From contig NZ_JACEGD010000026.1 of assembly GCF_016031635.1 (NCBI RefSeq), positions 1 through 64,000 of the forward strand: a stretch of DNA of 64,000 nucleotides. The letters are read 5' to 3'. The notes below the pieces were generated by a model. That model did not search any database, had not been told where the DNA came from, and saw only the letters and a program-made list of their open reading frames with translations. Numbering within the stretch: position 1 is the first letter of the stretch; every line of letters starts with the position of its first letter. The translations under genes were made by a program, and so were the position numbers. This DNA is from Bradyrhizobium diversitatis. Its GTDB lineage: Bacteria > Pseudomonadota > Alphaproteobacteria > Rhizobiales > Xanthobacteraceae. This document shows, piece after piece, positions 4,191-41,599 of this stretch.

Positions 4191-4329
4191 GCTCGCCCCG
4201 CTTGCGGGGAGAGGGTTGGGGTGAGGGGGAGTCTCGGCGAGGGCGCTGACAGTGAGACTCGCGGAGGCTCCCCCTCACCCGGAATTTGCTTTGCAAATTC
4301 CGGCCTCTCCCCGCACGCGGGGAGAGGCG
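4191..4329. repeat. Intergenic palindromic repeat ('ctctccccgc...gcggggagag' class)
   Basis: A compound inverted repeat. The ends are gctcgccccgcttgcgggga and the matching cctctccccgcacgcgggga type arms; inside are gtgaggggga / tccccctcac arms and a small perfect palindrome, ggaatttgctttgcaaattcc. It occupies the gap between the GrdB-like gene and the nudK-like gene and has no coding potential. It differs in sequence from the other palindromes in this window, so it represents a separate repeat class. Confidence 0.75.
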
Positions 4330-21975: not shown

Positions 21976-22383
21976 ATGAAGCTGACTCAAGGCTGCTTCT
22001 CGTTCCTGCCCGATCTCACCGACGATCAGATCACCAAGCAGGTGCAATATTGTCTGACCAAGGGTTGGGCGGTGAACATCGAGTTCACCGACGATCCGCA
22101 TCCCCGCAACACCTATTGGGAGATGTGGGGGCTGCCGATGTTCGACCTTCAGGACGCCGCCGGCGTGATGATGGAGCTCGCCGAATGCCGCAGGGTGTAC
22201 GGCGACCGCTACATCCGCATCAGCGGCTTCGATTCCAGCCATGGCTGGGAATCGGTGCGGATCTCCTTCCTCGTCAACCGGCCGCCGAAGGAAGCCGAGT
22301 TCGAGCTGGTGCGGCAGGAAGTCGGCGGCCGCGCGATCCGTTACACCACGATGCGCAAGCCGGCCCCCCACGCCGCTCAATAA
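21976..22383 (+). CDS. cbbS: RuBisCO small subunit, form IC
   Basis: A 135-residue small subunit starting MKLTQGCFSFLPDLTD. The family motifs GWAVNIEFTDDPHPRNTYWEMWGLPMF are interrupted nowhere, and the long C-terminal extension (FELVRQEVGGRAIRYT) is typical of red-type small subunits, whose beta-hairpin lines the central channel of the holoenzyme. The start is the ATG at 21976, after gaggagatttgac. A strong hairpin with a T-rich tail lies 53 bases downstream of its stop. Confidence 0.97.
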   Translation: MKLTQGCFSFLPDLTDDQITKQVQYCLTKGWAVNIEFTDDPHPRNTYWEMWGLPMFDLQDAAGVMMELAECRRVYGDRYIRISGFDSSHGWESVRISFLVNRPPKEAEFELVRQEVGGRAIRYTTMRKPAPHAAQ

Positions 22384-22435
22384 CCATTCTCCTCCGCGCG
22401 GAGCTCTCCCTGCTCCGCATCCTTGGCGGACCACT

Positions 22436-22467
22436 GCTTCGCCGCTCCCGGCGGCGAAGCTCTTTTC
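22436..22467 (+). terminator. Hairpin with T-rich tail between cbbS and cbbX (attenuator or processing site)
   Basis: A perfect 10-bp stem GCTTCGCCGC / GCGGCGAAGC with a TCCCG loop (22436-22460) is followed by TCTTTTC. It has the form of an intrinsic terminator and ends only about 12 bases before the cbbX start codon. Since cbbX should be needed at far lower amounts than RuBisCO, partial termination or 3'-end stabilisation of cbbLS mRNA is plausible. Confidence 0.7.
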
Positions 22468-22479
22468 TTCGAGGTGCCG

Positions 22480-23412
22480 ATGCTCGATGTTCCCCATGCA
22501 ACGACGACTGAACAGAACGAGACTCGTTTCGATCTCCGCAAGGAGGCCGAAGCGGCCGGGATCACCGATACGCTGCAACAGCTCGATCAAGAGCTGATCG
22601 GGCTCAAGCCGGTGAAGGACCGCGTGCGCCAGATCGCCTCGCTGCTGCTGGTCGAACGTATCCGGCAGCGGGCGGGACTGGCCTCCGCGCCGCCGACGCT
22701 GCACATGTCGTTCACGGGCAATCCCGGCACGGGCAAGACGACCGTGGCGCTACGCATGGCCAAGATCCTGCACGGCCTCGGCTTCGTGCGGCGCGGTCAG
22801 GTGATCTCCGTGACGCGCGACGACCTCGTCGGCCAGTATATCGGCCACACCGCGCCGAAGACCAAGGAGATCCTGAAGAAGGCGATGGGCGGCGTGTTGT
22901 TCATCGACGAGGCCTATTACCTGCATCGTCCCGACAACGAGCGCGACTATGGCCAGGAATCGATCGAGATCCTGCTCCAGGTGATGGAGAACCAGCGCGA
23001 AGACCTCGTGGTGATCCTTGCCGGCTATGGCGAGCGGATGACGAGCTTCTTCGCCTCCAATCCCGGCTTCCGCTCGCGCATCGCCCATCACATCGAATTT
23101 CCTGACTATGCCGAGGCCGAACTGCTCGTCATCGCCGAGCTGATGCTGAAGGAGCGCGGCTATCGCTTCTCGGCGGCCGCGCGCGAGGCTTTCGAGAAGT
23201 ACATCGAATTTCGCCGGACCCAGCCGTTCTTCTCCAACGCCCGTTCGATCCGCAACGCCGTCGACCGCATTCGTCTGCGGCAGGCCGATCGCCTGGTGTC
23301 CGATCTCGACCGTATGCTCGATGTCGCCGACCTCGAGACCATTGATCCCGCGGACGTCCTTGCGAGCCGCGTCTTCAGCGGCGGCACTGAAGCGCGGAGT
23401 GCAAAGCCATGA
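22480..23412 (+). CDS. cbbX: CbbX, red-type RuBisCO activase
   Basis: A 310-residue AAA+ ATPase. Walker A is GNPGTGKTT, Walker [12 protein letters not shown], and the pore loop is YIGHTAPKT; the C-terminal part carries [18 protein letters not shown]. CbbX hexamers thread the C-terminal tail of red-type RuBisCO large subunits to release bound sugar phosphates. I place the start at ATG 22480 ([12 protein letters not shown]); a longer frame from 22423 runs through the hairpin and reads as non-homologous sequence. The stop overlaps the cbbE start by 4 bases (ATGA). Confidence 0.94.
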
Positions 23413-39351: not shown

Positions 39352-39432
39352 GATTGCTTCCGGTTGTCATGCCCCCGGTGCGCCGGAAGCAATCTCCAAG
39401 GACGGCCCTGGCACGCACCGTGCCAGGGCCGT
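39352..39432. terminator. Two strong hairpins between convergent genes
   Basis: First stem GATTGCTTCCGG / CCGGAAGCAATC (12 bp perfect, 39352-39363 with 39383-39394). Second stem ACGGCCCTGGCACG / CGTGCCAGGGCCGT (14 bp perfect, 39402-39415 with 39419-39432, 3-base loop), followed by TTTGCTT. Together they should terminate both the 39110 gene and the ribbon-helix-helix gene. Confidence 0.8.
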
Positions 39433-41568: not shown

Positions 41569-41599
41569 TGAAGGACGCCGGACGCGCCGGCGTCCTTCA
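41569..41599. terminator. Strong hairpin downstream of the DUF4142 gene
   Basis: A perfect 13-bp stem TGAAGGACGCCGG / CCGGCGTCCTTCA with a 5-base loop, 8 bases after the stop of the DUF4142 gene. No T-run follows on the minus strand, so it may work through RNA stability or with Rho. Confidence 0.65.

What the first reader, a model, noticed from the sequence alone, without database searches (positions are those of the whole stretch)
22436..22467. Terminator-like hairpin between cbbS and cbbX
Seen: perfect 10-bp GC-rich stem, 5-base loop, TCTTTTC tail, 12 bases before the cbbX start. Inference: partial read-through would make far more cbbLS than cbbX/cbbE mRNA, or the hairpin protects the cbbLS 3' end. 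It also sits so near the cbbX ribosome site that it could limit its translation.
Basis: partly seen in the sequence, partly recalled or inferred. Interest (0 to 1): 0.52.

Follow-up and report, generated by a model that had tools for sequence, protein, structure and literature searches.

The report
Conserved two-hairpin RNA after Rubisco genes
Between the Rubisco genes and the gene for Rubisco's repair enzyme lies a strongly conserved pair of RNA hairpins, the second shaped like a transcription stop signal, which probably lets the cell make more Rubisco message than repair-enzyme message.

Summary
The hairpin is as described: 10 perfect pairs (22436-22445/22451-22460), loop TCCCG, tail TCTTTTC, 12 bases before the cbbX ATG. 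The two-hairpin model matches 112 of 112 fetched class-A Bradyrhizobium cbbS-cbbX spacers and recurs with different sequence and the same plan in a second CbbX clade and in Labrys. P2, the terminator stem, shows compensatory changes on an alignment not fitted to it (4 of 9 pairs, 37 cells, 0 of 500 shuffles). A model built only from the divergent clade finds the window's copy as best hit in its genome. It is single copy there and matches no Rfam family. About 19 nt separate hairpin and cbbX ATG, so cbbX probably needs read-through: a leaky terminator fixing the cbbLS 3' end is the best reading. Partial termination after cbbS is known in Ralstonia eutropha (recalled, not read). No RNA data were available. 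The limit-on-cbbX-translation idea is weak. A 3'-UTR-derived sRNA remains open.

The parts
22393..22397 (+). P1 outer helix, 5' arm (TCCGC)
   Evidence: folds; pairs with 22426-22430; conserved in class A
22398..22418 (+). P1 inner hairpin GCGGAGC-TCTCCCT-GCTCCGC with C-rich apical loop
   Evidence: UCCC present in the P1 region of 104 of 112 class-A and 29 of 29 other elements
22419..22425 (+). internal loop on the 3' side of P1 (ATCCTTG)
22426..22430 (+). P1 outer helix, 3' arm (GCGGA); 22424-22430 can alternatively pair with 22438-22444
22431..22435 (+). conserved linker (CCACT)
22436..22460 (+). P2: terminator-type hairpin, perfect 10-bp stem, loop TCCCG
   Evidence: covariation
22461..22467 (+). 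T-rich tail TCTTTTC
   Evidence: tails counted
22471..22474 (+). GAGG, likely cbbX ribosome site, outside the hairpin
   Evidence: its function is inferred
21976..22383 (+). cbbS (upstream gene)
22480..23412 (+). cbbX (downstream gene)

Best explanation
The cbbS-cbbX spacer encodes a conserved two-hairpin RNA element of about 75 nt. P2 with its T-rich tail acts as a leaky intrinsic terminator that forms the 3' end of the cbbLS-containing transcript, while a minority of polymerases read through into cbbX-cbbE. P1, just upstream, caps or stabilises that 3' end. The result would be more cbbLS than cbbXE message. Shown: the predicted structures, their conservation, covariation and position. Inferred: that P2 terminates, that it is partial, and the role of P1.
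For: P2 stem kept at 10 or more contiguous pairs (G-U allowed) in 108 of 112 class-A loci. T-rich tail in 109 of 112. Compensatory changes in 4 of 9 P2 pairs (37 cells; 0 of 500 shuffles; slid controls 0-3 cells) on a MAFFT alignment of 42 elements not fitted to the structure. Model R1, built from 10 class-B elements only, finds the window copy as best of its genome, E = 0.0016, and has a sense match at E of 1 or better in 42 of 43 loci taken as holding the element and 0 of 9 loci with other or no hairpins. R2 gives E = 2e-10 for the window copy, next hit 0.04. Hairpin end to projected cbbX start is 17-23 nt in 111 of 112 class-A loci, too short for a promoter after the hairpin; the sigma-70 scan found no site near, though it covers one promoter type only. 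In one B. japonicum strain cbbL, cbbS and cbbX rise together under elevated CO2 (2.1, 2.2, 2.0-fold; passage of PMC4070659). Precedent: premature termination after cbbS in Ralstonia eutropha (Schaeferjohann, Bednarski and Bowien 1996, recalled, not read).
Against: No transcript or 3'-end data were available. The class-A tail mostly begins TC or CC, not with unbroken T, so termination may be weak or absent. The microarray table gives fold changes only, and in its other two strains the three genes do not move together: cbbX 2.4 with cbbS not listed in SFJ14-36, and only cbbL listed in USDA 110. In 9 of the 17 loci L114-L130 the projected spacer is under 40 nt with no element, so the operon works without it there. 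In the genus 187 of 242 genomes carry the element while 221 of 242 have a CbbX match (E 0.001 or better, a few of them weak).
Confidence: 0.6

Rival explanations
1. Processing and protection: polymerase reads through freely; an endonuclease such as RNase E cuts near the hairpins, and P1/P2 shield the cbbLS 3' end while cbbXE mRNA decays. The ratio is set after transcription.
For: Two stable hairpins at the end of the cbbLS message. A processed RNA between nifH and nifQ is reported in B. japonicum (BjsR8, passages of PMC5082802).
Against: The T-rich tail directly after P2 is kept in 109 of 112 class-A loci; protection alone does not need it.
Confidence: 0.25
2. A 3'-UTR-derived small RNA from cbbS: P1 plus P2 accumulate as a stable fragment whose C-rich P1 loop pairs with ribosome sites of other mRNAs. 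This can be true together with termination.
For: UCCC is present in the P1 region in 104 of 112 class-A and 29 of 29 other elements although the stems differ (some loci repeat a genome). In 42 diverse elements 93% hold UCCC against a mean of 54.5% (maximum 83%) in shuffles, which do not allow for relatedness. Precedents: BjsR8 and PcrX from the puf 3'-UTR (passage of PMC10253847).
Against: No expression evidence. The word cbb does not occur in the main text held of the B. japonicum TSS paper PMC4842269 or of the sRNA paper PMC5082802; their supplements were not read. Eight of 112 class-A elements lack UCCC there.
Confidence: 0.15
3. A regulated attenuator: the GGCGGA segment (22425-22430) switches between closing P1 and pairing with the 5' arm of P2 (22424-22430 with 22438-22444), an antiterminator whose choice depends on a signal.
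For: Before the 3' arm of P2 is made, the alternative hairpin is the predicted best fold in the window (-22.3 against -20.2 kcal/mol) and in 74 of 112 class-A loci; 36 favour P1 and 2 could not be scored. The linker is nearly invariant in class A.
Against: Of 42 diverse elements 16 can form a 7-bp helix, 2 a 5-bp, 23 a 4-bp and 1 a 3-bp one. Where P1's 3' strand changes (L225, L234), P2's 5' strand keeps UCCG, and in L225 a C-G to U-A double change keeps a P1 pair. P2 is far more stable once complete.
Confidence: 0.1
4. Chance inverted repeat, dispersed repeat (REP), or coding sequence of a longer CbbX starting at TTG 22423.
For: The TTG frame is open in the window.
Against: The hairpin pattern occurs at one place in the genome. 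Covariation. The distance from the conserved TTG to the cbbX start keeps frame in 24 of the 104 class-A loci that hold the motif (8 of 112 lack it).
Confidence: 0.02

Closest known systems
Partial transcription terminator after cbbS in Ralstonia eutropha cbb operons (Schaeferjohann et al. 1996; recalled, not found in the paper library)
   Same: Same place, between cbbLS and cbbX; stem-loop; differential expression of cbbLS and distal genes (as I recall it).
   Different: Not compared by sequence here. The Bradyrhizobium element has a second, conserved upstream hairpin, and cbbP, cbbT and cbbA precede cbbLS in the window, so cbbLS are not first in the row.
BjsR8, RNA between nifH and nifQ of Bradyrhizobium japonicum (PMC5082802, passages)
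   Same: Intergenic RNA after an enzyme mRNA, thought to be processed from the 3'-UTR.
   Different: BjsR8 was seen on Northern blots in nodules; this element has no expression data. No sequence comparison was made.
[quoted passage not shown]
   Same: 3'-UTR of an operon for energy machinery.
   Different: A reported regulatory sRNA; ours is not shown to be one.
Other hairpins after cbbS in Rhizobiales (L145, L152, L154, L158, L239, L241)
   Same: Hairpin in the same spacer.
   Different: Different sequence; not matched by R2.

Membership tests
Intrinsic (Rho-independent) terminator | G+C-rich stem with short loop | tested here: met
   10-bp Watson-Crick stem, loop 5, -19.9 kcal/mol
Intrinsic (Rho-independent) terminator | U-rich tract directly after the stem | tested here: met
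   TCTTTTC; 6 T in the 8 bases after the stem, interrupted by C
Intrinsic (Rho-independent) terminator | RNA 3' ends or loss of coverage at the tract | not testable with these tools
   no RNA-seq or 3'-end data held
Conserved structured RNA | compensatory base changes across homologues | tested here: met
   P2: 4 of 9 pairs on an unfitted alignment. P1: 3 of 11 outer pairs in class B, a number reached by 44 of 500 shuffles, while 7 cells and the covariation score were reached by none; the inner P1 helix was paired in only 76.9% of cells there. On the fitted alignment A6, P1 10 of 11 and P2 5 of 11
Any Rfam 15 family | score at or above the gathering threshold | tested here: not met
   window 22200-22700: sX8 at 17.2 bits (threshold 50) over 22437-22502, and a ribosomal leader at 15 bits (threshold 34.1) outside the element
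REP or other dispersed repeat | many copies in the genome | tested here: not met
   one place for the hairpin pattern; one R2 hit below E = 0.04
3'-UTR-derived sRNA | stable short transcript | not testable with these tools
   needs Northern blot or sRNA-seq
Regulated attenuator | mutually exclusive antiterminator conserved across homologues | tested here: inconclusive
   7-bp alternative helix in 16 of 42 elements, 4-bp in 23 of 42; transient best fold in 74 of 112 class-A loci

The most novel reading that the evidence does not exclude
The element is an undescribed RNA family that is released from the Rubisco mRNA as a 3'-UTR small RNA; its C-rich P1 loop base-pairs with ribosome sites (for instance GGAGAG before cbbL, read), so that Rubisco message level feeds back on translation of cbb or other genes, while the same P2 hairpin sets the Rubisco-to-activase ratio.
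Probability: 0.13. Interest if true: 0.65.

Novelty: new variant of a known kind. Interest (0 to 1): 0.42.

Why it matters
Rubisco activase is presumably needed in smaller amounts than Rubisco (general knowledge, not tested), yet their genes share an operon. An element placed between them, with a model match in 187 of 242 sampled genomes of the genus, is a testable candidate for setting that ratio, and would matter to anyone moving red-type Rubisco with its activase into other hosts. The conserved C-rich loop region of P1 also makes a 3'-UTR small RNA worth a simple Northern blot.

Tried and rejected
Rejected: chance hairpin, dispersed repeat, N-terminal extension of CbbX, known Rfam family. 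Antiterminator switch: kept as a weak rival.

Led nowhere: the MAFFT alignment A2 places P1 of classes A and B out of register, so P1 was counted on class B alone and on the model-fitted alignment A6, in which several rows are visibly misplaced in P1 (for example L041, L096, L106, L220, L231, L233). A6 holds 36 of the 43 loci given; seven fell under the threshold. Single-sequence folds do not always show P1 as drawn (for example L082, L123, L218).

Papers: searches gave no report of this element; the Ralstonia eutropha paper was not found in the library and is cited from memory. Several papers were seen only in the listings. Passages, never whole texts, were seen of PMC11388446, PMC6515984, PMC4842269, PMC5082802, PMC12271211, PMC10253847, PMC3772326, PMC2942843, PMC11397080, PMC4070659, PMC5506194 and PMC9833100. 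PMC5506194 reports lower Rubisco activity in a clone with part of the cbbS-cbbQ spacer of an uncultured organism deleted, a different operon type.

Other R2 hits in the order: 11 of the 312 genomes that had no CbbX match at 1e-60 have R2 matches at E 5e-6 to 0.009, where about 4 in 397 genomes are expected by chance at 0.01. L281 and L282 were looked at in ORF lists, and seven loci (L281-L284, L292-L294) were rescored. L282 lies inside a long open frame and looks like chance; L281 is under Noticed in passing.

Rows set aside: class A here means the 112 loci L001-L112, fetched out of 125 places listed at 89% CbbX identity or more; the other 13 were not fetched in that step. L113 (87%) was left out because of extra bases before the element. 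The spacer conservation used 111 rows, without L112. L150 and L156 and L245, L254, L258 had no cbbS match. Loci of genome contigs repeat some genomes of the other sets (for example L121 and L210, L148 and L223, L139 and L205 have the same spacer), so counts over loci are not counts of independent species. The 29 non-class-A elements and the 42 rows of A2 were chosen by me from loci judged to hold the element.

Full report
What is there. It is more than chance: the window holds 10 stems of this quality against a mean of 0.95 in 20 shuffles, and 2 of the 10 are followed by 5 or more T in 8 bases. The gene order read from the ORF list and NCBIfam is cbbP, cbbT, cbbA, cbbL, cbbS, cbbX, cbbE; cbbS is named from position and similarity. 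The nearest named relatives of this CbbX are Bradyrhizobium.

A second hairpin. Folding 22384-22520 shows two hairpins. P1 (22393-22430) has an outer helix TCCGC/GCGGA, an inner helix GCGGAGC/GCTCCGC, a C-rich apical loop TCTCCCT and an internal loop ATCCTTG.

Conservation in class A. CbbX matches are found in 221 of 242 genomes of the genus. For 112 loci fetched (L001-L112, CbbX 89% identical or more; 112 of 125 such places listed) the spacer was read. Column conservation of the spacer averages 0.903 over 111 rows, about that of the coding DNA on either side (0.920 for cbbS, 0.904 for cbbX) and above third codon positions (0.830 and 0.796). P2 keeps 10 or more contiguous pairs, G-U allowed, in 108 of 112; the exceptions are L057, L104, L108 and L112. 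Its loop varies from 3 to 12 nt; the tail has 5 or more T of 8 in 109 of 112; the hairpin ends 17-23 nt before the projected cbbX start in 111 of 112. A longer CbbX from TTG 22423 is not a conserved feature: the frame is kept in 24 of 104 loci that hold the motif.

The same plan with different sequence. More distant CbbX loci (about 72-79% identity), among them B. lablabi, B. jicamae, B. valentinum, B. tropiciagri, a Tardiphaga genome, Labrys sp. KNU-23 and two Xanthobacteraceae metagenome genomes, have spacers of different sequence but like plan: a stem closed by UCCG/CGGA or its variants, UCCC in the P1 region, a short linker and a terminator-like hairpin with T-rich tail. Single-sequence folds do not always show P1 as drawn (L082, L123 and L218 for example). 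The class names A and B are mine.

Covariation. On a MAFFT alignment of 42 elements, chosen by me for diversity and not fitted to any structure, P2 has 98.4% of cells paired, 4 of 9 pairs with changes on both sides and 37 such cells; none of 500 shuffles reached these values (the count of further pair types, 8, was reached by all), and sliding the partner by 1-3 columns gave 0-3 cells. In 10 class-B elements the outer P1 helix has 3 of 11 pairs with double changes; 44 of 500 shuffles reached that number of pairs, none reached the 7 cells or the covariation score. The inner P1 helix is poorly kept there (76.9% of cells paired; one pair fails in 8 of 10 rows). On the model-fitted alignment of 36 elements P1 has 10 of 11 and P2 5 of 11 pairs with double changes; this leans towards the structure and some rows are misplaced in P1.

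Homology of the two classes. Model R1 was built from the 10 class-B elements alone. It has a sense match at E of 1 or better in 42 of 43 loci taken as holding the element (L108 missed) and in 0 of 9 loci with other or no hairpins; it also hits the reverse strand of P2 in many loci, as a palindromic stem must. In the window's 8.45-Mb genome its best hit is the window's copy, E = 0.0016, next 0.17. With R2 (36 elements, the window's included) the window copy has E = 2e-10 and the next hit 0.04. The hairpin pattern occurs at one place. A few other genomes of the genus have two matches (for example G036, G060, G121, each also with two CbbX matches).

Range. R2 matches 100 of 100 loci L001-L100 in the spacer and 45 of a further 100 loci on the sense strand in the spacer, L101-L114 all included; some of these loci went into the model and some are one genome fetched twice. 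In the genus 187 of 242 genomes have a match at E of 1e-4 or better; none of the 20 genomes that names as lacking CbbX is among them. In the order, 16 of the 85 genomes with CbbX at 1e-60 have a match at 0.01: 13 of the genus and 3 of one genus of another family, of which one (L139) has a spacer identical to that of Labrys sp. KNU-23 (L205). Eleven of the 312 genomes without such a CbbX have weaker matches, against about 4 expected by chance over the 397. Nine of the 17 loci L114-L130 have a projected spacer under 40 nt and no match. Published trees place the Labrys sp. KNU-23 cbb operon with that of Bradyrhizobium and discuss transfer (passage of PMC11397080), which fits the element moving with the operon. 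Rfam has no match above threshold.

How it most likely works. With about 19 nt between hairpin and ATG there is no room for a promoter after the hairpin, and the sigma-70 scan shows none near it, though it covers only one promoter type. So cbbX probably depends on transcripts that pass through P2. In one B. japonicum strain cbbL, cbbS and cbbX rise together under elevated CO2 (2.1, 2.2, 2.0-fold), but in a second cbbX rises 2.4-fold with cbbS not listed, and in USDA 110 only cbbL is listed (passage of PMC4070659); this neither proves nor excludes one transcript. A conserved terminator in that place must be leaky, or the hairpins act in processing. The class-A tail, interrupted by C, is imperfect. 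I take partial termination with 3'-end formation as most likely (0.6), pure processing and protection as second (0.25). Partial termination after cbbS is known in Ralstonia eutropha; I recall that work and could not read it.

Other readings. The 3' strand of P1 can pair with the 5' arm of P2. In 74 of 112 class-A loci this alternative is the predicted fold of the transcript just before the 3' arm of P2 is made. But only 16 of 42 diverse elements can form the 7-bp version, and in L225 and L234 P2's 5' strand does not follow changes of P1. UCCC in the P1 region is present in 104 of 112 and 29 of 29 elements, more than shuffling predicts (93% against 54.5%, maximum 83%, in 42 elements), which suggests a functional loop: a small RNA processed from the cbbS 3'-UTR, as reported for BjsR8 of nifH, is possible but without expression evidence. 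The rivals are not all exclusive, so the confidences need not add to one. That the hairpin limits cbbX translation finds no support: GAGG lies outside the stem and is conserved.

Verdict. Observation confirmed; interpretation partly supported. What is new is a conserved two-hairpin RNA element, absent from Rfam and not met in the paper searches made here, in a place where partial termination is, as I recall, already known in another genus.

Noticed in passing
L001-L112, loop of P2 (window 22446-22450): The P2 loop in class A is mostly a run of C of variable length (loop 3 to 12 nt) inside an almost invariant stem, as if by slippage.
   Followed up: partly
L281:1501-1597 (- strand): An R2 hit (E 5e-6 in its genome) in another family of the order: a two-hairpin element of like plan at the end of an open frame that I read as an EF-hand protein (not tested by a family search), with no cbb gene seen in the ORF list of the 3-kb locus. 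Relative or convergent terminator, unknown.
   Followed up: partly
L145 and L146, cbbS-cbbX spacer: A single long hairpin with loop TCCTCCCTCTC after cbbS and no terminator hairpin seen; the C-rich loop resembles that of P1.
   Followed up: no
L113, cbbS-cbbX spacer: Spacer of 234 nt instead of about 98: extra bases lie between cbbS and the element, which is kept next to cbbX.
   Followed up: no
window 39402-39432 and 41569-41599: Perfect 14-bp and 13-bp inverted repeats, the first followed by TTGCTTATGT; may be ordinary terminators.
   Followed up: no
window 4279-4328: Two perfect 11-bp hairpins side by side, overlapping by one base.
   Followed up: no
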